The translations under genes were made by a program, and so were the position numbers. From Aquamicrobium zhengzhouense (GTDB lineage Bacteria > Pseudomonadota > Alphaproteobacteria > Rhizobiales > Rhizobiaceae), in assembly GCF_016124105.1 (NCBI RefSeq), contig NZ_JADGMQ010000002.1, positions 248,001-312,000 on the forward strand: a stretch of DNA of 64,000 nt, in the 5' to 3' direction. The notes under the pieces are model-generated. The model had not been told where the DNA came from. It searched no databases and saw only the letters and a list, made by a program, of their open reading frames with translations. Within the stretch, counting starts at the first letter, position 1. The number at the start of each line of letters is the position of its first letter. Below are positions 1 to 10,319 of the stretch, in pieces.

Positions 1-709
1 TTCTCCTGACCGGATTAGCGACTTGCGCCAGTTGCCAAGGCGGCATGAGCCTCACAACCGGCAAGTCCGGGCGCTATCGCTACTATGCCTGCGCCACCTG
101 CGCCCAAAAGGGTAAGAGCGCCTGCAAGGCCGCTCAATGCCAATGGACAAGCTCGATACAATCGTCACCGACCGCATTACGGACCGGCTCCTGGCACCTC
201 AACGTGTTGAAAAACTGCTGACCGGCCTGATCGAACGCCAGGCCAACCGCAGTGCCGATTACACCGACCGCGTGGCCAATCTCAGAAAGAACCTCAGCGA
301 CACAGAAGCGCGCCTAAAGCGCCTCTACGACGCCATCGAAAATGGCATCGCCGACCCCTCCGAGGAACCCCTCAAAGACCGCATCACCGCAATCAAGACG
401 GAGCGCGATATCGCGCAGGTTACCCTTGATCGCACTCTCACAGAACTGCGGCCCGAAGCCCGGATCACGCAAGACAAGATCGCTGCCTTCACGGCCATCA
501 TGCGCGACAATATCTAGAACGGCTCAATTCCATTCCGCCGCGCCTATCTCCGCGCCATGGTCGACAATGTCGAAGTCGACGACTCCGAAGTCCGTATCCA
601 CGGGCGAAGAAGGATTCTGGAAGGACTGGTGATGGGCGGCAGAGCCTCTCCCGCAGGAGTGCCCAGTTTTGTTCGGAAATGGCGCACCCGACAGGATTCG
701 AACCTGTGA
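1..709 (+). pseudogene. Large serine recombinase, 3' remnant (frameshift plus premature stop)
   Basis: This is the C-terminal part of a resolvase/invertase-type large serine recombinase; the catalytic N-terminus lies outside the window. Frame 3 (from base 3) encodes the recombinase zinc-ribbon, with CASC and CATC cysteine pairs. One missing base near 128-129 shifts the frame: restoring a G gives CKGRSMPMDKLD, the usual continuation. The coiled-coil region follows from about 137 in frame 2. A TAG at 515-517 interrupts the match, but the same frame stays open afterwards ([20 protein letters not shown]) to a TGA at 707-709, inside the tRNA gene. The family integrates mobile elements at specific att sites. 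Two disabling lesions suggest a dead integrase stranded at the edge of an old element. A sequencing error could explain one lesion, but less easily both. Confidence 0.8.
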
Positions 710-756
710 CCTCTGCCTTCGGAGGGCAGCACTCTATCCAGCTGAGCTACGGGTGC
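680..756 (-). tRNA. tRNA-Arg (anticodon CCG)
   Basis: On the minus strand the 77-nt sequence folds as a full tRNA. The acceptor stem GCACCCG pairs with CGGGTGC, the 3' CCA is encoded, the T-arm is ACAGG-TTCGAAT-CCTGT, and the anticodon stem CTGCC/GGCAG encloses the loop CTCCGAA. That loop gives anticodon CCG, which reads CGG arginine codons. The 5' half plus about 29 bp of upstream DNA is exactly repeated at 5603-5670, and the 3' half overlaps the end of the recombinase remnant. It is therefore an integration target that has stayed functional. Confidence 0.95.
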
Positions 757-785
757 ATCCGGATATAGATGCGTCTTTAGACGAT
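718..785. repeat. Left copy of 68-bp direct repeat (att-like, tRNA-Arg 5' half)
   Basis: This copy is identical over all 68 bases to 5603-5670. It starts in the anticodon loop of tRNA-Arg(CCG) (TTCGGAG on the plus strand), covers the tRNA 5' half and extends about 29 bp beyond the tRNA 5' end. Outside these limits similarity drops abruptly on the anticodon side and fades on the other. A boundary in the anticodon loop is typical of tRNA-targeted site-specific recombination. Usually, however, the duplicated segment is the tRNA 3' half, whereas here it is the 5' half. Confidence 0.85.
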
Positions 786-845
786 CACGCGCCGGGCTTC
801 AATGGATTAACGCGAACTATGCGTGGGAATGTGCGTATCCTGAGC

Positions 846-883
846 GGCAGAGGTCACAAGTTCGTATCCTGTCGGGTGCGCCA
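846..883 (+). repeat. Inverted remnant of tRNA-Arg 3' half
   Basis: These 38 bases match the tRNA-Arg(CCG) 3' half, from the anticodon-stem GGCAG through the CCA end, with two mismatches, both in the T-arm. The remnant lies on the plus strand, opposite to the intact gene at 680-756. It cannot form a tRNA alone. It begins at the same anticodon-loop border where the direct repeats stop, suggesting it is the half displaced by recombination and later inverted. Confidence 0.8.
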
Positions 884-955
884 GAGTTCAGGAAACAGCT
901 GGATGGGGTGGGCCGGGTGTGGCCGGGATGTGCCGGAGCGGTGACACCTCTTTTC

Positions 956-1378
956 CTAGCGGGCGACCGTTACAACCACCGATCGCCCGACATTTCCGCG
1001 TCCGTAAATCTCGACCAACACCATTGCGCCCCCGCGGACGATGTCGCGTGCCGCTTGTGCCGAGATCGAGCCATTTCGAAGCATATTCTCAAGAGCAGCT
1101 CGGTTGTTCGCATTCCCGAAGAAGCTATCCCCTTCATCACCAGCGTCCTTAACTCCGAAGCGATGAAAGTTGGCCCGGTCCTGACGGAGGATCTGCCACG
1201 GCTCCGTTAATCGAGCGCCGTTGGAGTTAAATAGATCTCGGCGTCCGATATGGGCTACGTAGCTTTCGATCAATTCCTCCCCGGCTGGCTCAGAGCGAGT
1301 AATTGACTGTGCGACGGCGGTGTTTGTTGTCCAAGCAGTGATGACCAACAGGCATGCTAGGCGGAGTAAAGTGTTCAC
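956..1378 (-). CDS. Small secreted hypothetical protein
   Basis: This is a 140-residue protein that I do not recognise. The chosen start is GTG at 1378, preceded by a purine-rich AGGGGGGA ribosome-binding stretch; an upstream in-frame start would place extra residues before the signal peptide. The N-terminus (NTLLRLACLLVITAW) is a classic Sec signal peptide with likely cleavage after AVAQ. The mature part is about 115 residues, polar, with a Gly-rich C-terminus (EIYGRGNVGRSVVV) and no cysteine motif. It is presumably periplasmic or exported. It lies alone inside the island and its role cannot be inferred. Confidence 0.6.
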   Translation of the reverse strand: MNTLLRLACLLVITAWTTNTAVAQSITRSEPAGEELIESYVAHIGRRDLFNSNGARLTEPWQILRQDRANFHRFGVKDAGDEGDSFFGNANNRAALENMLRNGSISAQAARDIVRGGAMVLVEIYGRGNVGRSVVVTVAR

Positions 1379-2025
1379 AGTAGTCCCCCCCTTTCGTCGA
1401 GAGTCCGAGAATACCGTTCGGCGATGAGGTGACAAGCTTGAATGACGCCACAGTTGGATGCCCGTTCGCCCAGCGTCGTATCATGCCGGTCGCGCTGGTT
1501 GTCGCAGGAGGCGCTTGGTGGCGCCGTCCGAGCGTTGTGTCTTGGAACTTTGAGCGATTGGGATTGGAGCCAGCCAGCGAGCTCCCCTGACACGCTGTTG
1601 CACCGCATTGCGCGGATGGGCGTGAGCCGCTGTGTGGAGGTCACGGTTCCGAAGCCGGTGGTGTTGCCGGGGGGGTAGTGAGGGGGAGCCAAGGATCACC
1701 ATGCCTCTGCACTGGATGCACTGAGGTCGCCGACCAGGCATAAGGTCACGACAGGAGCTGATCACACGCCGTAGTGAGGGGGCGCTTCTTTAGACGCAGG
1801 GGTGAGCGCCGGCTGGCTTCGCGTCCGTTCGCGCAGAAGTTCACTGCTTCTCTCAGACGCTGCGCAACATCGTGGAACTGACGGGGTCCGAATGAGGTGG
1901 CGATGTAACAGATTCGACCCCTGTCGCCGGTGCGCGAGCAAGTATGAGTCGTGGCATAGGCTGCTCGAAGATCAAAGAAATAGCACGATCAGACATCTGC
2001 GGGGGCGTATAGAACTGGACAGGAA
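1379..2025. other. Gene-poor stretch with no supported coding sequence
   Basis: Several overlapping open frames on both strands have low-complexity, Arg/Ser-rich translations typical of non-coding GC-rich DNA. None has a convincing start or a recognisable domain. The only structured signal is a tRNA T-arm-like fragment at 1908-1935. This is probably decayed mobile-element DNA. Confidence 0.5.
1908..1935 (+). repeat. Possible second degenerate tRNA-Arg 3'-end remnant
   Basis: The stretch can be aligned with the tRNA-Arg(CCG) T-arm and acceptor 3' strand: 23 of 26 bases match, with a 2-base insertion and no CCA. It has the same orientation as the remnant at 846-883. The TTCGA core is common to most tRNAs, so chance or another tRNA source is possible. 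Confidence 0.3.
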
Positions 2026-3795
2026 TCAGAACGACCAGAACACAGGGATGAAGATGACGCCTAGCACCCAAAAGAGCAGATTCAGCGGAAGGCCAACCTT
2101 AACGAAGTCAGTGAACCTGTATCCACCGGCACTATAGACCATGGTGTTGGTCTGGTAGCCTACCGGCGTCGCAAAACTTGTTGAGGCAGCAAATGTGACC
2201 GCTATCAGGAAGGGGGTGCTATCCACGCCGAGCATGTCAGCGGTGGACATGCCGATAGGAGTGAGCAAAACAGCCGCGGCCGCATTACTCATGAACTCGG
2301 TTAGCAGTAGCGCCATCAAATACAAGACAGCCAACACTACCAGTGGGCCGAAGTCACTGACCATACCTATCGAGTTTGCGACGATGAACTGGGCCGCCCC
2401 GGTCTGAGACATGGCAATACCCAGAGGCAGCAATCCAGCTAGTAGGATAAGAATACGCCAGTCGATGGCATCATAGACCTCGTCGGCATCGAGGCAGCCT
2501 GCAAGGGTCATTGCCAGCGCACCAATCAGTGATGTGATCGCAATGGGCACCCAACTGAGCGCAGACAGGACTATCACTAGTGCCATCGTTATGAGGGCAA
2601 AGGGCGCGCGCCAGCCGCGAGGCCTGTCAGCTTCCCGCTGGCTGAGCACGATGACATTGGAATCTCGACGCAGTGCCTTCATCTCGGCTTCGGGAGTAAG
2701 CATCAGCAAGACATCGCCGACATTCAAAGTCACGTCTTTGAGCTGCTCACGCAACCTTTTACCTCGGCGATGAATGGCCAGCACCGTCGCATTGTGTTGC
2801 CAGCGTCGGTCAAGCAGCGCCAGCGTGCTCCCAATGACTCGTGATCGCGGGGCAATCATCACTTCGGTCAGCACCTGCTGCGTGCCTTCCTCAAGGGTCC
2901 GAGCCTTCAGCTGGAACTCGGTGTTGATCTCAAGTCCCGCCTTTGCCCTCAGCTGATCTAACTTCGACCAATCGCCCCGGGCGATCAGGATGTCGTCTTC
3001 TTTCAGTATCTGTGACCGCGGAGACCAAACTTTCCTTTCCCCACGCAGCAGTTCCAGAACGAAAACGCCAAAATCTCTGCCAAGCCGAGCTTCAGCAACA
3101 GACGTTCCGATCAACGAAGAGTCGGGCAAGACGCGCAGTTCGGTAATGTATTTTCCCAGTTCATACTGCTCGACAAGTTCATTTGCTCGCGCGTCTGGCA
3201 AGAGCCATCGACCCACGGTCAGCAGATAGAAACATCCGGCCAAAAAGCAGATTATCCCCAGCGGCGTGAACTCAAACATGCTGAACCCGGGATGGCCTAA
3301 GTCCTGTGCCATTGCGTTGACCAACAGATTGGTTGAGGTGCCAACCAAGGTGCAGACCCCCGCCATCTGCGACACGTAGGACAGCGGAATGAGCGCCTTG
3401 GATGCTGACATTCCGATGCTCGCAGCGGATGTAATGACCAGCGGCATGAAAACGGCAACGACGGCCGTGTTGTTGACGAAGGGAGCAACAACAGCCAGCA
3501 CCGCGAACAAGACAAGGAGAAACAGGAATGGCGATTTTGCCTGTCCCAGCAAGCTGCCTATCCCGGACAGCGCGCCGCTGTTCTGAAGCCCTGCTGCCAG
3601 AACAAACATTGCCCCCACTGTGACGGTGGCTTGATTGCTAAAGCCGCTCAACGCCTCGCTTGGGCTGATGAGCCCAAGTATGACTAAGGAGAAGAGCACC
3701 AGAAGTGCCACCGCGTCGATCCGCAACTTCTCCGTTGCAAACAGAATGATGGCGATCAGGGCGACACCCAACACCAACATAATTTCGACTGTCAT
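2026..3795 (-). CDS. SLC13/DASS-family permease with two RCK (TrkA-C) domains
   Basis: This 589-residue inner-membrane transporter has ion-transporter-superfamily topology. Hydrophobic segments fill residues 1-195, a soluble stretch at about 210-390 contains two TrkA-C/RCK-C-like domains (for example ITELRVLPDSSLIGTSVAEA and later VMIAPRSRVIGSTLALLDRR), and a second membrane half follows from about 400. Conserved SLC13-type signatures include FVNNTAVVAVFMP in the first half and FMSNAAAAVLLTPI in the second. Relatives carry sulfate, dicarboxylates or other anions using Na+ or H+; the substrate is not readable here. The ATG start at 3795 fits the first membrane segment. It is monocistronic within the island, with TauE downstream in map order but 0.9 kb away. 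Confidence 0.9.
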   Translation of the reverse strand: MTVEIMLVLGVALIAIILFATEKLRIDAVALLVLFSLVILGLISPSEALSGFSNQATVTVGAMFVLAAGLQNSGALSGIGSLLGQAKSPFLFLLVLFAVLAVVAPFVNNTAVVAVFMPLVITSAASIGMSASKALIPLSYVSQMAGVCTLVGTSTNLLVNAMAQDLGHPGFSMFEFTPLGIICFLAGCFYLLTVGRWLLPDARANELVEQYELGKYITELRVLPDSSLIGTSVAEARLGRDFGVFVLELLRGERKVWSPRSQILKEDDILIARGDWSKLDQLRAKAGLEINTEFQLKARTLEEGTQQVLTEVMIAPRSRVIGSTLALLDRRWQHNATVLAIHRRGKRLREQLKDVTLNVGDVLLMLTPEAEMKALRRDSNVIVLSQREADRPRGWRAPFALITMALVIVLSALSWVPIAITSLIGALAMTLAGCLDADEVYDAIDWRILILLAGLLPLGIAMSQTGAAQFIVANSIGMVSDFGPLVVLAVLYLMALLLTEFMSNAAAAVLLTPIGMSTADMLGVDSTPFLIAVTFAASTSFATPVGYQTNTMVYSAGGYRFTDFVKVGLPLNLLFWVLGVIFIPVFWSF

Positions 3796-4059
3796 GCGTT
3801 GCTGGACCTTTGATCTGTTACGGTGAGGTTTGGTCGGTCATGTTCGTTTAACCGGTGGTGAGGAGAGAGATGGCGGTTGGTTGCAAGTAAAATGTTAATA
3901 ATCAGCAAGAAACAGGCCTTCATTAACACTGATCCCGACCCTACATAGTGTTCATAACCAAATCGCGCACAGACCAACGCCGCCTATGAAGCGTCACGCT
4001 TGCGGTAAAGAAGCGGGTATTTCGCCGTTCGCGCAACGATCGGAGACTTGAAGAACATT

Positions 4060-4293
4060 ATGCTTGATACTAACAAATTTCCCATTGGCGAAGTTCTGCT
4101 CATGAATTTAGGCCGCGATCAATGCCGCTTTCCGGTTCGCGTTGATCCGTCAGCAACGGGCGGTTACCGCTTTTGCGCCACGCAAACCTCAGCGGACCGC
4201 GTCTACTGTGATCATCATCATGGGATTGTGACTTCTGCGGAGCCCCGAGGAGTTCGTTCAAGTTTTGGTCGCGTCCAACGCCGCACTACTTAG
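4060..4293 (+). CDS. GcrA-like zinc-binding mini-protein
   Basis: This is a 77-residue protein whose centre (RDQCRFPV, GYRFCATQT, VYCDHHHGI) matches the C-terminal Cys/His signature of GcrA-type cell-cycle regulators, with C...C...C-x2-H spacing. The N-terminal GcrA helix-turn-helix is absent; only about 25 residues precede the motif. GcrA binds sigma70 and methylated GANTC promoters in alphaproteobacteria. Truncated relatives occur on phages and islands. Start choice is uncertain: ATG 4060 is about 14 bases after GGAG, while a TTG at 4048 and an ATG at 4102 are alternatives. It could be a decayed fragment rather than a working gene. Confidence 0.5.
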   Translation: MLDTNKFPIGEVLLMNLGRDQCRFPVRVDPSATGGYRFCATQTSADRVYCDHHHGIVTSAEPRGVRSSFGRVQRRTT

Positions 4294-4687
4294 GGTTACG
4301 CTTTGCAGCGCTCGAAAACGCCCAGCTTGGGTGTTTGTGTTCACGCGGCTGGTTGCGGCATCCCTTACAACTCGGGCGCAGTTCGGAAACTACAACGTAT
4401 TGAATCTTGGTGTATTTTTAGAACGAACCTAAATCGTGCGACGTTTGCATGGTTTGAAACGAAAGCCATTCAGAGACTGAAAATAGCGTTCGAAGCAGTC
4501 TCAGAGCTTTGGTGGAAACTGATGGGTGCATTCGACTATGCTTCTCGACATTTTGCGAGTCCGTTGGCGTCACCATAGACAACGGTGACTGCTGATATAC
4601 CCGCTACGTAGGTGCCCGAGGGCTTCTTCTCAGCCATCGCTCTCGCCGCAGCCATCATCTTCTGGCTGTGAGCAATGGGTCTTGAGG
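4294..4687. other. Intergenic stretch, no supported gene
   Basis: This is AT-richer than the surroundings (for example around 4390-4500). A 91-codon open frame at 4303-4578 has no ribosome-binding site of note and an atypical composition, and is not accepted. A CAGCCA/TGGCTG hairpin near 4651-4671 might terminate the TauE gene, but it lacks a T-run. Confidence 0.4.
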
Positions 4688-5449
4688 CTATTTAATCGGC
4701 ACAAACGCCGGGAGCATCAGCACGGCGCCCGTTAATACGAGCAGCGAGACGGTGAGCATTCTGGCCGCATACGGCGAGAGTGGGGGTGGCCATCGCCGCG
4801 CCGCTTCGGTGGAGAGGATCGTTGCGGGCACGAGGATCAGGGTCGTATGGATAAGTTCAGCAGTCGGCAGGCCCGAAATGCTGGATGAAATGACGCGGGT
4901 GACGGATATTGCAGCGAAGATTGCAACCAGAGTGGCACGAATTTCTCGCTGATCGGCAAGATAACGCTGCAACGCATAGACGATAGGCGGGCCGGGGACT
5001 GCAAAGAGGCCACCCATGATCCCGCTTGCTAGCCCACTTAACGGGAAAGCAAAGGGTTGGGGCGGCGCAAGATCATCTTTCGGGATGCGCAGAAGTCGCA
5101 AGCTCGAAACGATCACGGCGACGCCGAGTGCGAATTTCAGCCAGACAGCCGAACTGGCGAGAAGACCCGGAAGAAGGAAAGCGCCGACAACCGTTCCGGC
5201 CAAAGCAAGCGGGACGATCTGAATAAATGCTCGCCGCGCCACAAACTGCCGTTCCGATGCGAGGATCATCGTGGCATTCACCAGCATCAATAAGGTCGCG
5301 ATCATCGCGCCATCTTCAAAGCCGATAACGTTGGTTGTCGCGATCGCGCTCATAAATATCAACGCGAATGCAAAGCCGGTCACGGTTTGCAGGTAGGATG
5401 AGATGCACACGAAGGCGGCGAGCGCTGCGACGCTGGTCAGGTTAAGCAT
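4688..5449 (-). CDS. TauE/SafE-family sulfite/organosulfonate exporter-like permease
   Basis: This 253-residue polytopic membrane protein has about eight hydrophobic segments arranged as two repeats. The second repeat carries the family's Gly/Pro-rich motif (GLASGIMGGLFAVPGPPIVY, about residues 140-160). Members of TSUP (TauE/SafE/YfcA) export sulfite, sulfoacetate or other sulfur anions across the inner membrane. The ATG at 5449 follows an AGGGA site. It ends about 50 bases inside the island's right repeat region boundary and has no obvious operon partner. Together with the SLC13 gene it gives the island an anion-transport theme, but co-function is only inference. Confidence 0.85.
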   Translation of the reverse strand: MLNLTSVAALAAFVCISSYLQTVTGFAFALIFMSAIATTNVIGFEDGAMIATLLMLVNATMILASERQFVARRAFIQIVPLALAGTVVGAFLLPGLLASSAVWLKFALGVAVIVSSLRLLRIPKDDLAPPQPFAFPLSGLASGIMGGLFAVPGPPIVYALQRYLADQREIRATLVAIFAAISVTRVISSSISGLPTAELIHTTLILVPATILSTEAARRWPPPLSPYAARMLTVSLLVLTGAVLMLPAFVPIK

Positions 5450-5602
5450 GTGATCCCTGGTGGAGCATGGGGCGCGTATCCACCGCCGCTTCCCTTCAAG
5501 TGGCGGGAACGTGCCGTCAGCACGTCGGTCTCAATCTGTGCGAAGCGGAAAGACTTGCTCGGCAAGTGTTTAAGTTCAAATCCGAAATGGCATTGGGCCA
5601 AG

Positions 5603-5670
5603 TTCGGAGGGCAGCACTCTATCCAGCTGAGCTACGGGTGCATCCGGATATAGATGCGTCTTTAGACGAT
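5603..5670. repeat. Right copy of 68-bp direct repeat (orphan tRNA-Arg 5' half)
   Basis: This is a perfect copy of 718-785 in the same orientation. It carries the 5' half of tRNA-Arg(CCG) on the minus strand, from the acceptor 5' strand to the anticodon loop. It has no 3' half, so it cannot make a tRNA. It probably marks the right boundary (attR-like) of the inserted segment. The flanking stretches 5450-5602 and 5671-5869 show no convincing gene. Confidence 0.85.
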
Positions 5671-5869
5671 GATGCCGATCGCTTCAACGGCAAAGGTGAC
5701 GATGAGATGCGATTGTGCGCAGGTTATGGCTGACCGTGCCTCTTTGTAAGGTCGAGTGCCTTACTGAAGCGACGGGATGGAGTGGGTGAACGGGCAGGTG
5801 CCCCTGCGTGGACTCTGCCAGCTTAAACGCTATCATCTGACCGTTCCGGCGATAAATTCTGGCGGTTGC

Positions 5870-7165
5870 ATGAATTACTGGACATGGTTCCTTGGACGGC
5901 TGAAGCGCCAGTTGTGGTGGCAAGCTCTGGCTTACGGCGCGTTGGGCGTCCTGACAGCCTTTGCTGCTCTTGGCGCTGAAACGTTTTTCCCGTGGCAGAT
6001 TCCCTGGGACATCGACCGGGACGCGGTATCAAGTCTCCTGACCGTCATCTCCTCAAGCATGCTGGCCGTGACCACCTTCTCGCTGGGAGCTATGACGGCC
6101 GCGTTCGGGGCCGTGACGTCAAATGTTACGCCGCGCGCGACTCTGCTTCTGATGGAGGATCGCGTCACGCATAATGTGCTCTCGAGTTTTATCGGGGCGT
6201 TTATCTTCTCGATCGTCAGCACGATCGTTTTGCACACCGGTTCCTACGGAGAGCGCGGCAGGGCGGTGCTCTTCCTGATCACGATTCTGGTTATCGCTCT
6301 GGTGGTCGTCCAGCTTCTTCGCTGGATCAATCATCTGATCTCACTTGGCCGCGTCGGAGCAACGATCGAGCGGGTAGAGAAAGCGGCTGCGGCAGCGATC
6401 AAGGAGCGGCTCAGCACCCCCTATCTGGGTGCACATCCGTGGTTGCCCGATGCGCCCCACCCGAACTGTGCGACGCTTATAGCAGCCAATTCCATTGGCT
6501 GTGTGCAGTTCGTGGACATTCCAAGATTGTCGGATATCGCCGAAGAGCATCAGCTGCAGATCTACATTCCGCTGAATGCGGGTGCCTTCGTTTACGAGGA
6601 TGTCGCCCTGGCCTTTGTCGAGGGCGCGGTCTCTTCGGATATCGAAGACGAGATCCGAAGCCAGTTTGTCATGGCACAGCAACGCAGCTTTGAGCAGGAT
6701 CCGCGGTTCGGCCTGATTGTGATGGCCGAAATCGGATCCCGAGCGCTTTCAAGTGCGACCAACGATGCCGGGACGGCTCTCGACGTCATCGGACGTCTCA
6801 CGCGGCTTTTGACGCTCTGGTCGACGGGGCGGGCGGAGGAGCCCGTGATCTATCCGCGGCTGCACCTGCGGCCTCTGGTTGACGGCGACCTCTTCGATGA
6901 TGCCTTCATGATCATCGGACGTGACGGTGCACATCTGGTCGAGATTCAGGTGCGCCTCCAGAAGGCTCTTGCGGCCCTGCAAAGGGTGGGGGGCGAGAGT
7001 TTTCGAGCTTCTGCCGCAAGGCATGCAGAGCTTGCACTCGCACGGGCACAGGCATCGCAGATGATCCGGTCTGATCTGCAATACATCGCGGAGGAGATGA
7101 AACGCGTACGGCAGATCGCAGCGGTTCAGGATGCTTCCTCGCAAAGCTGCGCGCGGATCGGCTGA
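5870..7165 (+). CDS. DUF2254 family membrane protein
   Basis: This 431-residue protein matches the DUF2254 family throughout. It has four hydrophobic segments in the first half (about 18-38, 60-85, 105-135, 140-165) with the motif SSSMLAVTTFSLGAMTAAFG, followed by a roughly 260-residue soluble domain. The start ATG at 5870 places MNYWTWFLGRLKRQLWW ahead of the first membrane segment; the open frame extends 31 codons further upstream without support. The biochemical function of the family is unknown; an inner-membrane location is clear. It is the first gene right of the island and is followed in the same direction by chrA after a 127-base gap. Confidence 0.85.
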   Translation: MNYWTWFLGRLKRQLWWQALAYGALGVLTAFAALGAETFFPWQIPWDIDRDAVSSLLTVISSSMLAVTTFSLGAMTAAFGAVTSNVTPRATLLLMEDRVTHNVLSSFIGAFIFSIVSTIVLHTGSYGERGRAVLFLITILVIALVVVQLLRWINHLISLGRVGATIERVEKAAAAAIKERLSTPYLGAHPWLPDAPHPNCATLIAANSIGCVQFVDIPRLSDIAEEHQLQIYIPLNAGAFVYEDVALAFVEGAVSSDIEDEIRSQFVMAQQRSFEQDPRFGLIVMAEIGSRALSSATNDAGTALDVIGRLTRLLTLWSTGRAEEPVIYPRLHLRPLVDGDLFDDAFMIIGRDGAHLVEIQVRLQKALAALQRVGGESFRASAARHAELALARAQASQMIRSDLQYIAEEMKRVRQIAAVQDASSQSCARIG

Positions 7166-7292
7166 TGTGGGAATGCGCACTCAGCCCAAACCGGCGTTCG
7201 ATGCTGTGGGCTGGTGCAGAAGCTGACATATGTCGGCAACGATGACCGAGTAATCAACGATCTGATTCCGGTTCGTTCGGCAGGCAGGGAAA

Positions 7293-8483
7293 TTGAGAGC
7301 CACTGAGAGAAGTGCAGGCGAGGTCTTCGGGACCTTCCTCAAGCTGGGACTGACCAGTTTCGGCGGTCCCATTGCGCATCTGGCCTATTTTCGCGATGAG
7401 CTCGTCGTTCGCAGAAAGTGGCTGGATGACCGTGAATATGCGGATCTGGTCGCCCTTTGCCAGTTTTTGCCAGGGCCTGCGTCAAGTCAGGTCGGCTTCG
7501 CATTGGGTTTGATGCGTGCGGGCTGGGCCGGTGGGCTAATGGCCTTCCTGGCATTCACTGTTCCTTCCGCATGTCTGCTGATCCTGTTCGCCACCCTTGC
7601 GGTCAACCTCACGGGTCCGATCGGTATCGGCGTACTCAGTGGCTTGAAGATCGTCGCGGTTGCGATCGTCGCGCAGGCTGTCCTGGGGATGGCGAGGAGC
7701 CTTTGCCCCGACAAGGAGCGCGTGAGCATCGCGGTAGCCGCGCTTGCGTCGGTCTCCCTGCTGGAGGGAGCGACCGGCATGCTGGCGGCTATCGTTATTG
7801 GTGCGGTCGCGGGGCTTATGTTCAATCGTGGTACGGCATCGTCAGAGCGGGGGCAGCTCTCAACTGGAGTTAACCAAAGGACAGCGAGCGCATCCCTGGC
7901 GATTTTCGTGACCTTGATGATTGCTCTTCCTCTTCTGGCCCAACAGAACTCGTATCTTGCGGTCGTCGATGGGTTCTATCGTGCAGGATCGCTGGTTTTC
8001 GGGGGAGGGCACGTGGTTCTGCCTCTTCTGGAAGCAGAAACGGTTGGCACGGGCTGGGTAACCCCGGAACAATTCGTGGCGGGTTATGGAGCGGCGCAGG
8101 CAGTTCCGGGCCCGCTATTCACCTTCGCGGCTTACCTCGGTGCGGTCAAAAGCGGCGTGCCGAACGGACTGGGCGGCGCTTTTATTGCCCTCCTGGCAAT
8201 ATTCCTGCCTGGGTTTTTGCTGCTCGTGGGCGCTCTGCCGTTCTGGGATCGTCTGCGTAGGGAAGCCAGCGCTCAATCCCTGATGCAGGGGACAAATGCT
8301 GCGGTGGTGGGGGTGCTTGGAGCAGCGCTCTATTCGCCGGTATTCACGAGTGCCATCCACGATGTCAGAGCGTTCGCGCTGGCGGTGATCTGCCTTCTGC
8401 TTCTGATGTCGTGGAAGATCGCGCCCGTCCTAGCCGTGGTGTTCGCCTCTGTTGGAGGCGTGGCTCTTCAACTGGTCCATTAG
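7293..8483 (+). CDS. chrA: Chromate transporter ChrA, two-domain form
   Basis: This 396-residue inner-membrane protein of the CHR family consists of two homologous halves. The first (residues 1-190) has the motif FGGPIAHLAYFRDELV and FLPGPASSQ; the second (about 210-396) has FGGGHVVLPLLE and PGPLFTFAAYLG. Long-chain CHR proteins export chromate, giving resistance, and some act on other oxyanions such as sulfate. The start is TTG at 7293 after an AGGCAGGG-like site; no better ATG exists before the first domain. The spacing from the DUF2254 gene allows co-transcription. No ChrB regulator is present nearby, so regulation is not visible. Confidence 0.92.
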   Translation: MRATERSAGEVFGTFLKLGLTSFGGPIAHLAYFRDELVVRRKWLDDREYADLVALCQFLPGPASSQVGFALGLMRAGWAGGLMAFLAFTVPSACLLILFATLAVNLTGPIGIGVLSGLKIVAVAIVAQAVLGMARSLCPDKERVSIAVAALASVSLLEGATGMLAAIVIGAVAGLMFNRGTASSERGQLSTGVNQRTASASLAIFVTLMIALPLLAQQNSYLAVVDGFYRAGSLVFGGGHVVLPLLEAETVGTGWVTPEQFVAGYGAAQAVPGPLFTFAAYLGAVKSGVPNGLGGAFIALLAIFLPGFLLLVGALPFWDRLRREASAQSLMQGTNAAVVGVLGAALYSPVFTSAIHDVRAFALAVICLLLLMSWKIAPVLAVVFASVGGVALQLVH

Positions 8484-8568
8484 CGAGCGGAAGGGGGCTG
8501 CCGCGTTTTTGCCCCAATAGCCCTTTTGATAGCTCTTGTACGGCGGGGGCTGTCAGGAGAGGCTCACC

Positions 8569-9192
8569 GTGCTCTATCCGCTTCAGGCCGCAGCGGCGGC
8601 CGTCACCGTCTCGCTTGCCCTTTCAGCATGCACCTCGACGTCCAGTCTGCTGGACGACATGACGACCTCTTCGATCAGACCAAATGCGCATTCGGCAAAG
8701 GAACGCGAGTGTCTCGCGCGAGCCATGTTTTTCGAGTCGCATCGATCCAGTCGCGAAGGACTCGTTGCGGTGGGTACCGTGGTTATGAATCGTGTCGCTG
8801 CAGATGAGTATCCGAATGGCATCTGCGGTGTCGTCGGTCAGAAGAACCAGTTTGCACCGGGCGTGATGACGCGAAAGATGAACTCCAAAGCCATGCCAGA
8901 CGTCATGGCCGCCGCTGATGCGGTTCTAAAAGGCGAGCGGCACCCGAAGGTCAAGAACGCCAAGTTCTTCCATCAGGCCGGCCTGAAGTTCCCCTATAAG
9001 AACATGCACTACGTCCTCGTCGCCGGCGGCAACGCCTTTTATGAAAAACGCAGCCGAGCAGAACGCCTGGATGGTCCCCTCCGAAAGCAAAGCGAGCTTG
9101 CTGCAGCTGGTCTCGTGGAAAACAAACCGGTGGCCATTGCAGCCGGAACCGAGGAGCTCGAAGCGATGACCCTCTCGTACGGCGCTGAATGA
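8569..9192 (+). CDS. Cell-wall hydrolase (SleB/CwlJ-like) lipoprotein
   Basis: This 207-residue protein starts with GTG at 8569, eight bases after AGGAGA. The N-terminus has a lipoprotein signal ending in the lipobox LSAC (about residues 18-21), so it is probably an acylated periplasmic protein. Residues 45-175 form a Hydrolase_2/SleB domain: ECLARAMFFESHRSSREGL, then VGTVVMNRV and NQFAPG, typical of peptidoglycan lytic hydrolases with a catalytic Glu in the AxxxYxE-like region (here FFES). The tail of 30 residues is not conserved. It stands alone between chrA (86 bases upstream) and a convergent acyltransferase. Confidence 0.87.
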   Translation: MLYPLQAAAAAVTVSLALSACTSTSSLLDDMTTSSIRPNAHSAKERECLARAMFFESHRSSREGLVAVGTVVMNRVAADEYPNGICGVVGQKNQFAPGVMTRKMNSKAMPDVMAAADAVLKGERHPKVKNAKFFHQAGLKFPYKNMHYVLVAGGNAFYEKRSRAERLDGPLRKQSELAAAGLVENKPVAIAAGTEELEAMTLSYGAE

Positions 9193-9230
9193 AGGATACG
9201 GAACAGGTTTGGCTTGAATATGAAACGCGC

Positions 9231-10319
9231 TCAACCGGCAGCTTGGGGCACTCGGACGTAGTTAACCCGAAGCTTCAGGAATGGAACCTCCACGTATCTG
9301 AAGCTTAGCCTAGCGAGGGGTACGAGCGTCAGGAAGCATATCAGTGACGCAAACGTTGCAATGTAAAAATTATTGAGTGCCACGACCCGAGTGTGGATCA
9401 AATCGGCTATCCAGAAAACGAAGAAGAAATGGAGAAGGTATAGGGAGTAAGAGCACTCGCCAATTTTCGCTAGGAGATTGGCCCAAGGGTTTTCCGAGGT
9501 CCATTGGTAACTTCTGTCGTAGTACGCAATCAAGGCACCGTATGCTGCTCCCTCTACGGTTGGGATGATCAGCCAGATGGCGTTGGATGAGGGATAGCTC
9601 CCTATTTGGTAGAAGCCCCCCAAGGCGTCGAAGTACCAATAGAATCCGCTGAATAAGACCGCTGCCAGCAGTGCGAGTACATGCTGTTGCTGCATAACGC
9701 GGCCGAAATGGAAAAATATCATTCCCAGGATGAACTGGTCCATTCTCCCGATTATCGTCCAGTAGGAGAACCATTGTATGCTTCCATCCCGTGCGTACAT
9801 GTAGCATCGGAGAGCGAGGAACGCGGCGAGTATTGCGAACAATAGAAGCGGTCTTCGTCGTGAGAACGCGAGAAGAAACGGAAGAATTATATAGAAATGA
9901 AACTCTACTGTGATTGACCAGCCGCCATTCGGTATCGTCGGCGCGTAAAGCCCGGAGGCAACCATACGAACGTATTCAGTTACGTTTCCGCCATGTAACC
10001 AGTGCTGCACGCCGACGATAAAAACCACCAACGCAAGTAGGGGGATCAAGCGCAGAGCGCGGTTGAAAATGAAAGGAAAGTAGAGAATATCTCTTCCGTG
10101 CAGTATTTTTGCGAACAAATAACCGCTTATTGTCATGAATAGGGCGACACCAGTATGGCCCTCGTCGATAGTGGACATGAAAAATATTCTCGGGGCGCCC
10201 TCAAAAGGCACTGGATATCCAGATCCAGCGTGAATGAAGTGCCAGCTGAAAACCATAAATGCAGCAATGGCACGCACGTGATCTAGCGTTGGATAGTAAT
10301 GTCCCGAAGAGGATCTCAT
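9231..10319 (-). CDS. Acyltransferase family 3 (OafA/YrhL-like) membrane O-acyltransferase
   Basis: This 362-residue integral membrane protein has about ten hydrophobic segments. The N-terminal motif LDHVRAIAAFMVFSWHFIHA (residues 12-31) carries the conserved Arg and His of acyltransferase-3 enzymes, and GWSITVEFHFYIILP (about 137-151) is the second signature. Family members transfer acetyl or other acyl groups from the cytoplasmic side to sugars of O-antigen, exopolysaccharide or other surface glycans. There is no SGNH domain, and no glycosyltransferase lies nearby to reveal the acceptor. Base composition is clearly more AT-rich than the neighbours, suggesting horizontal acquisition. Confidence 0.9.
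   Translation of the reverse strand: MRSSSGHYYPTLDHVRAIAAFMVFSWHFIHAGSGYPVPFEGAPRIFFMSTIDEGHTGVALFMTISGYLFAKILHGRDILYFPFIFNRALRLIPLLALVVFIVGVQHWLHGGNVTEYVRMVASGLYAPTIPNGGWSITVEFHFYIILPFLLAFSRRRPLLLFAILAAFLALRCYMYARDGSIQWFSYWTIIGRMDQFILGMIFFHFGRVMQQQHVLALLAAVLFSGFYWYFDALGGFYQIGSYPSSNAIWLIIPTVEGAAYGALIAYYDRSYQWTSENPWANLLAKIGECSYSLYLLHFFFVFWIADLIHTRVVALNNFYIATFASLICFLTLVPLARLSFRYVEVPFLKLRVNYVRVPQAAG

What the first reader, a model, noticed from the sequence alone, without database searches (positions are those of the whole stretch)
846..883. Displaced tRNA-Arg 3' half lies inverted inside the island
A 38-bp copy of the tRNA 3' half (two mismatches, CCA included) is on the plus strand, opposite to the intact gene. 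It begins at the same anticodon-stem border where the direct repeats end. Together with the orphan 5' half at 5603 it accounts for both halves of a second, split tRNA gene, implying insertion followed by an inversion. A weaker similar fragment at 1908-1935 suggests repeated events.
Basis: seen in the sequence. Interest (0 to 1): 0.55.

Follow-up and report, generated by a model that had tools for sequence, protein, structure and literature searches.

The report
Inverted tRNA half marks island end
The backwards tRNA half is real, but it is not the scar of a flip in this one genome: it is a recurring piece of the insertion end of a family of mobile islands that enter a tRNA-Arg gene from its front side and supply a replacement front half and promoter.

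Summary
Confirmed: 846-883 (+) matches nt 40-77 of tRNA-Arg(CCG) (gene 756..680, minus) at 36 of 38 positions; the best in 200 simulated windows was 25. The matching orphan 5' half (nt 1-39) lies at 5603-5641.

A private "insertion, then inversion" is not supported. The same inverted 3' half lies 86-129 bp upstream of tRNA-Arg(CCG) in 15 genomes found here, also at junctions between tandem islands. It is the tRNA-side end of islands inserted at the anticodon loop that rebuild the tRNA from its 5' side: 3' half | 5' half-promoter-[inverted 3' half]-arm repeat ... cargo ... arm-103 bp-[orphan 5' half]. The far arm lies 102-104 bp from the orphan half in 11 of 13 cases (random places 6 of 3000). 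One tyrosine-integrase clade goes with it: all 9 genomes found with that integrase hold an orphan 5' half. The window's island carries no such integrase.

Islands that displace a 5' fragment are known; an inverted 3' half built into their end is, as far as my searches reach, a new variant, and one that the Islander pipeline filters out. What the inverted half does, and how it arose, is inferred.

The parts
680..756 (-). Intact tRNA-Arg(CCG). Reading: chromosomal 3' half (680-716) joined to an island-borne 5' half (717-756)
   Evidence: the reading of the halves is inferred
757..838 (-). Island copy of the tRNA promoter; -10-like at about 777-782 and -35-like (antisense TTCAAT) at about 798-803; 0.93 identical (first 60 nt) to Aquamicrobium aerolatum's, 0.82 to the far copy in this genome
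846..883 (+). Inverted tRNA 3' half (nt 40-77): the finding; end of the island next to the tRNA
919..934 (+). Arm-type repeat GTGGCCGGGATGTGCC behind the inverted half (3 mismatches to the arm motif)
956..1435 (-). ORF of 159 aa, no Pfam match, in the island
1902..1935 (+). Second, decayed inverted 3' half (27/34, gapped): likely relic of another island junction
   Evidence: neighbouring 5'-half relic not significant
2026..3795 (-). Island cargo: CitMHS/SLC13-type transporter with TrkA_C domains
4688..5449 (-). Island cargo: TauE/SafE-type exporter
5500..5515 (+). Far-end arm repeat GTGGCGGGAACGTGCC, at the standard distance (102-104 bp by the count) from the orphan 5' half
   Evidence: control
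5603..5641 (-). Orphan 5' half (nt 1-39) of tRNA-Arg(CCG): displaced chromosomal half, far island end
5642..5720 (-). Native promoter region behind the orphan half; 5603-5720 is 85% identical to the region at the tRNA in Aminobacter sp. J41 (G001)
1..632 (+). 3' part of a broken large serine recombinase gene beside the tRNA 3' end (Recombinase domain just outside the window); not shown to belong to this island

Best explanation
846-883 is a built-in part of the tRNA-proximal end of a mobile island. The island family integrates with a tyrosine integrase at the anticodon loop of tRNA-Arg(CCG) and, unlike most tRNA islands, rebuilds the gene from its 5' side: it supplies a substitute 5' half with promoter, while the chromosome's own 5' half is displaced to the far end (here 5603). 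Directly upstream of the promoter copy the island carries an inverted copy of the tRNA 3' half, then arm-type repeats. SHOWN by comparison: the shared architecture, its presence between tandem islands, the fixed far-arm geometry, and its company with one integrase clade. INFERRED: that the element's circular form holds arm-103 bp-core-5' half-promoter-inverted 3' half-arm; that the integrase cuts in the anticodon loop; that the inverted 3' half is a second core-type site, left over from an ancestral attachment site that carried a whole or 3'-half tRNA copy, and now at most an integrase-binding element. In this window the island carries no such integrase and has a decayed second junction, so it is probably immobile now; its left 3.9 kb is nearly identical to A. 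aerolatum's, so it moved between lineages not long ago.
For: Same inverted half upstream of tRNA-Arg(CCG) in 15 genomes (G222 only nt 40-64). Family pattern scan 9 of 394 genomes, 0 for the reversed control (one of the 9, G323, is a chance hit). Scan of 84,980 species: 12 loci in 9 genomes. Orphan 5' half in 10 of the 15. Far arm 102-104 bp from the orphan half in 11 of 13 against 6 of 3000 random places at the same tolerance. Arm behind the inverted half in 14 of 17 at up to 5 mismatches, 9 of 17 at up to 3; random 116 and 11 of 3000. Tandem junctions arm-5' half-promoter-inverted half-arm: 2 in Nitratireductor, 1 in G135. Integrase clade of 10 sequences, support 100/99; orphan 5' half in 9 of 9 genomes that carry it, inverted half in 7 of 9 (G139 and G070 end in contig breaks). 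Island block 680-4538 is 98.7% identical to G007 although leuA is 83%.
Against: The window's island has no tyrosine-integrase match, and the best homolog of the clade in its genome is 40% identical and lies elsewhere. G001, G026, G034, G222 and Bauldia have the inverted half but no orphan 5' half was found (for Bauldia only 8 kb were looked at). G163 lacks the far arm and in G083 it is off (114 bp, 5 mismatches). In G135 the integrase and its 5' half lie 2.8 Mb from the intact tRNA; in G007 and G164 the orphan is on another contig. The arm motif was read off own, G007 and G371 and then applied, and the G138 case was found by that motif. The pattern scans fixed the spacing window, so the tight 86-96 bp spacing is partly a selection effect (G083, G164, G135: 120-129). 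The inverted halves differ from the tRNA by up to 5 of 36 positions in the scanned rows, as a relic would. No circular form or activity was observed.
Confidence: 0.78

Rival explanations
1. One reading: in this lineage an island carrying a whole tRNA copy inserted, then the interior 846-5602 inverted, splitting the second tRNA into the halves at 846 and 5603.
For: Re-inverting 846-5602 would join nt 1-39 and nt 40-77 without gap or overlap. The sister integrase clade's islands at tRNA-Ser(CGA) do carry a whole tRNA: two complete identical same-strand copies flank 4 of the 10 islands looked at.
Against: The inverted form is found in 15 genomes and at tandem junctions, with no un-inverted form at tRNA-Arg among 11 intact loci. 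A flip of the whole interior should also flip the integrase, yet relative to the tRNA it reads the same way in both clades. So a flip, if any, is ancestral and confined to the attachment site.
Confidence: 0.1
2. Each insertion copies about 120-170 bp of the host's own 5' half and promoter (a long target duplication), so that the rebuilt tRNA keeps the host promoter; the inverted 3' half is simply the element's end joined just upstream of the -35 box.
For: In 7 genomes where the far copy has no inverted half, the two promoter copies agree at 0.90-1.00 over the first 60 nt in 6 (own 0.82); in 3 more (G007, Nitratireductor, G135) two island-type copies agree at 0.98-1.00; between genomes the median is 0.60. 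The distance from the -35 box to nt 40 of the inverted half is 28-48 bp in 13 of 18 rows. In the sister islands the two promoters are not alike beyond 4-24 nt in 3 of 4 (G081 alike further out), which speaks against routine conversion.
Against: Own genome: the island promoter resembles the donor A. aerolatum (0.93), not the host copy (0.82). Spread within a species, or gene conversion between the direct repeats, would give the same likeness. No known integrase makes such duplications (recalled).
Confidence: 0.3
3. The inverted half is a functional element of the host: a divergent small RNA or a control site of the tRNA promoter.
For: Near-constant position just upstream of the -35 box.
Against: Strong in only 5 of 30 relatives' loci; sporadic; T-stem and T-loop broken in this copy (A58 replaced; by eye); linked to an integrase clade.
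Confidence: 0.03
4. Chance similarity or part of another tRNA.
For: None found.
Against: 36/38 against at most 25/38 in 200 simulated windows; recurs at the same place in unrelated genera.
Confidence: 0.001

Closest known systems
tRNA-targeting tyrosine-integrase islands with a displaced 5' fragment (159 of 3919 islands in Islander, PMC4383910)
   Same: Intact tRNA at one end, orphan 5' half upstream in the same orientation at the other end, anticodon-loop crossover, integrase inside the island in relatives, tandem arrays
   Different: The tRNA-side end carries an inverted 3' half and arm repeats; Islander's orientation filter rejects inverted fragments and counts them as false positives (passages read)
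Standard 3'-restoring islands at the same tRNA-Arg(CCG) (seen in G026 and G371)
   Same: Same tRNA; 3' half starting near the anticodon arm (nt 24-77 or 30-77) as att copy; related integrase in G026
   Different: Direct, not inverted, 3' half, on the 3' side of the tRNA; other arm repeats (GTCACC type)
Islands of the sister integrase clade at tRNA-Ser(CGA)
   Same: Integrase 51-55% identical, also carry tRNA 5' half and promoter
   Different: Carry a whole tRNA gene in normal order; no inverted half seen
tRNA-dependent lysogeny (Fionnbharth and other phages, PMC10865867)
   Same: Element supplies what is needed to keep an essential tRNA after inserting into it
   Different: There the tRNA is not rebuilt and a separate whole phage tRNA complements; here it is rebuilt from its 5' side (abstract and passages read)

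Membership tests
tRNA-targeting tyrosine-integrase genomic island, 5'-fragment class | Intact tRNA plus same-strand 5' fragment upstream, island between | tested here: met
   717-784 = 5603-5670; orphan nt 1-39 at 5603
tRNA-targeting tyrosine-integrase genomic island, 5'-fragment class | Integrase gene inside the island | tested here: not met
   Not in the window's island; met in relatives: clade integrase within the island or beside the orphan half in G371, G064, G083, AFS091992, Nitratireductor. So the window holds a remnant, not a complete member
tRNA-targeting tyrosine-integrase genomic island, 5'-fragment class | Sporadic presence; relatives with the tRNA but without the island | tested here: met
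   25 of 30 relatives' loci without a strong inverted half (two of them borderline: L020, L037); G005 keeps the upstream core genes next to its tRNA
tRNA-targeting tyrosine-integrase genomic island, 5'-fragment class | All displaced fragments in the tRNA's orientation | tested here: not met
   The 3' half at 846-883 is inverted
tRNA-targeting tyrosine-integrase genomic island, 5'-fragment class | Excision as a circle by the integrase | not testable with these tools
   Needs PCR or reads
Standard 3'-restoring (attL intact, attR 3' half) island | Direct 3' half on the 3' side of the tRNA | tested here: not met
   None near the window's tRNA; 846-883 is inverted and upstream
tRNA-dependent lysogeny | tRNA not rebuilt; separate whole tRNA gene carried by a phage | tested here: not met
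   tRNA intact, only one tRNA gene in the window
Large-serine-recombinase island | Serine recombinase is the integrase of this island | tested here: inconclusive
   A broken one lies beside the tRNA 3' end here and one in G034, none on G007's C26 or C47 in that search, and the islands with intact ends carry the tyrosine clade

The most novel reading that the evidence does not exclude
A self-mending insertion: each time one of these islands enters tRNA-Arg(CCG) it duplicates the host's own promoter and 5' half, so the rebuilt tRNA stays under the host's control, and it seals the join with an inverted 3' half that serves as a second integrase core; the att site would thus have two opposed tRNA cores around a promoter cassette, a kind of attachment site not described in what I read.
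Probability: 0.25. Interest if true: 0.75.

Novelty: new variant of a known kind. Interest (0 to 1): 0.5.

Why it matters
Island finders treat an inverted tRNA fragment as noise: Islander uses it as its false-positive measure. Here such fragments are a regular, recombination-linked part of an island family, so part of that 'noise' may be real ends. The family also shows how an element can enter a tRNA gene from the promoter side without killing it, and offers a clean question: is the replacement promoter carried by the element or copied from the host?

Tried and rejected
Local inversion (see rivals). Simple flip of the promoter/5'-half segment in an ancestral whole-tRNA attachment site: explains where the inverted half sits but not the place and direction of the integrase, so left open. 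A switchable promoter/5'-half segment between two 3' halves: no flipped state in 11 intact loci. Fixed-distance insertion as by CRISPR-linked or Tn7-like transposons: the distance is 86-129 bp and an integrase clade is linked; I did not search for transposase genes. A conserved host site at the promoter end: not seen in the upstream sequences printed for relatives without the inverted half. A decayed inverted half behind the orphan 5' half of the window: not significant (p 0.19). A 5'-half relic before 1902: not significant. The integrase-adjacent hairpin-like site (GCTGCC-7 nt-GGCAGC-RCTCTCC with an arm before the integrase start, seen in 7 loci) has loops unlike the tRNA-Arg loop; its role is unexplained. 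Literature searches listed no paper that from title and abstract start describes an inverted 3' half at a tRNA island; only listings were seen for most papers, so this is weak evidence of novelty. Passages were read in PMC4383910, PMC11476347, PMC8371274, PMC10865867 and PMC9897764.

Full report
Terms: T5 = tRNA nt 1-39, T3 = nt 40-77, 'inverted half' = T3 copy on the opposite strand upstream of the tRNA.

What is in the window. The only tRNA is tRNA-Arg(CCG) at 756..680. Its T3 recurs inverted at 846-883 (36/38), far beyond chance (at most 25/38 in 200 simulated windows). T5 plus 28 bp of leader recurs at 5603-5670 (68/68). The weaker piece at 1902-1935 stands above the window's background. 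Between lie a CitMHS-type transporter, a TauE-type exporter and small ORFs; no tyrosine integrase matches in the window.

It is not private. Of 30 loci around tRNA-Arg(CCG) fetched from 30 genomes (own included), 5 have a strong inverted half and two a borderline one at 128 bp (L020, L037). A pattern scan of 394 family genomes hit 9 (7 of 109 genera) against 0 for the reversed pattern; on inspection 7 are clear, G222 keeps nt 40-64 and G323 is chance. A scan of 84,980 species gave 12 loci in 9 genomes: Bauldia litoralis (MAG), Aurantimonas sp. VKM B-3413, Aquamicrobium aerolatum (2), Fulvimarina manganoxydans, Nitratireductor aestuarii (3), Aminobacter sp. J41, Rhizobiales AFS091992, Tianweitania sediminis, Flavimaribacter sediminis; the three names looked up belong to Hyphomicrobiales, in three families. 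Both patterns fixed the spacing (about 80-110 bp), so they are lower bounds: integrase-led searching later added G064, G083, G164 and G135, the last three at 120-129 bp. With these, 15 genomes hold an inverted half.

It is an island end. In 10 of the 15 an orphan T5 on the tRNA's strand is present (own, G007, G371, G163, G064, G083, AFS091992, Nitratireductor, G164, G135), 4.9 to 28 kb away where both lie on one contig near each other; in G007 and G164 it is on another contig and in G135 2.8 Mb away. In Nitratireductor the unit T5-promoter-inverted half recurs at junctions inside an array. At the orphan T5 an arm motif GTGGCGGG..TGTGCC begins 102-104 bp away in 11 of 13 orphans (10 of them with at most 3 mismatches); a 12th was seen by eye at a contig end in G139. 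Random places: 1 of 3000 at up to 3 mismatches, 6 of 3000 at up to 5. Exceptions: G163 (none), G083 (114 bp, 5 mismatches). Behind the inverted half a like motif follows in 14 of 17 rows at up to 5 mismatches (9 at up to 3); random 116 and 11 of 3000. The motif was defined on own, G007 and G371, and G138 was found with it, so these four are not independent.

The integrase. Islands in Nitratireductor (2), AFS091992 and G371 contain near relatives of one tyrosine integrase. In 199 family genomes, 25 have a homolog at E 1e-40 or better, 6 at 69% identity or more. All 10 close sequences form one clade (100/99). All 9 genomes with it have an orphan T5; 7 of 9 have the inverted half, the other two (G139, G070) break off at contig ends. 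Of 8 comparison genomes only G138 showed an orphan T5, a relic away from its tRNA. The sister clade (9 sequences) sits at tRNA-Ser(CGA): in 4 of 10 islands looked at two complete identical tRNA genes flank the island, in a fifth one complete gene and nt 29-90; no inverted half was seen.

The promoter copy. Over the first 60 nt the island's promoter copy equals the far copy at 0.90-1.00 in 6 of 7 genomes with a clean far copy (own 0.82), and two island-type copies agree at 0.98-1.00 in 3 more; between genomes the median is 0.60. Own's island copy resembles A. aerolatum's (0.93). The inverted half begins 28-48 bp beyond the -35 box in 13 of 18 rows; no -35 was recognised in the other 5. So what is repeated is about the minimal promoter plus T5. 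Whether it is carried by the element, homogenised, or copied from the host at insertion is open.

Mobility here. 680-4538 is 98.7% identical to A. aerolatum while leuA is 83%: the block moved recently. No integrase of the clade was found in the window's genome (best 40%), so the island is probably a stranded remnant.

Reading. The element enters at the anticodon loop, gives the tRNA a new promoter and 5' half, and displaces the old 5' half. The inverted half is part of the element's end; I take it for a second core-type site, inherited from an ancestral attachment site that held a whole or 3'-half tRNA copy. Copies differ from the tRNA by 0-5 of 36 positions, and own's has lost the universal A58 (by eye; the rule is recalled), so it need not be functional now. 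Islander lists 3760 islands with 3' and 159 with 5' fragments and rejects fragments of opposite orientation (passages); such ends would be discarded there.

Noticed in passing
window 1-632 and 1.2 kb to its left: Broken large serine recombinase gene abutting the tRNA 3' end, between the tRNA and core genes that adjoin it in Aminobacter sp. J41; G034 has one in the same place.
   Followed up: partly
L060 (G371) 1-9900; L039 (G007) 247-2401; L075/L076 (G138): Several of these islands carry restriction-modification or other defence-like cargo (Vsr, C5 methylase, BglII-type endonuclease, HsdM).
   Followed up: partly
L147/L148, L151/L152, L153/L154, L155/L156: Sister-clade islands flanked by two complete identical tRNA-Ser(CGA) genes on the same strand.
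   Followed up: partly
upstream of the integrase in L100, L102, L103, L105, L094, L097, L060: Conserved hairpin-like site GCTGCC-7 nt-GGCAGC-RCTCTCC with an arm about 95 bp on, loop sequence variable.
   Followed up: no
G004:C2:253961-254010 and G056:C2:369975-370024: Direct partial tRNA-Arg copies (nt 1-50) 100-200 bp upstream of the intact gene.
   Followed up: no
L039 (G007) against the window: In A. aerolatum leuA lies on the 3' side of the tRNA, in the window on its 5' side: a rearrangement with an end near this tRNA.
   Followed up: no
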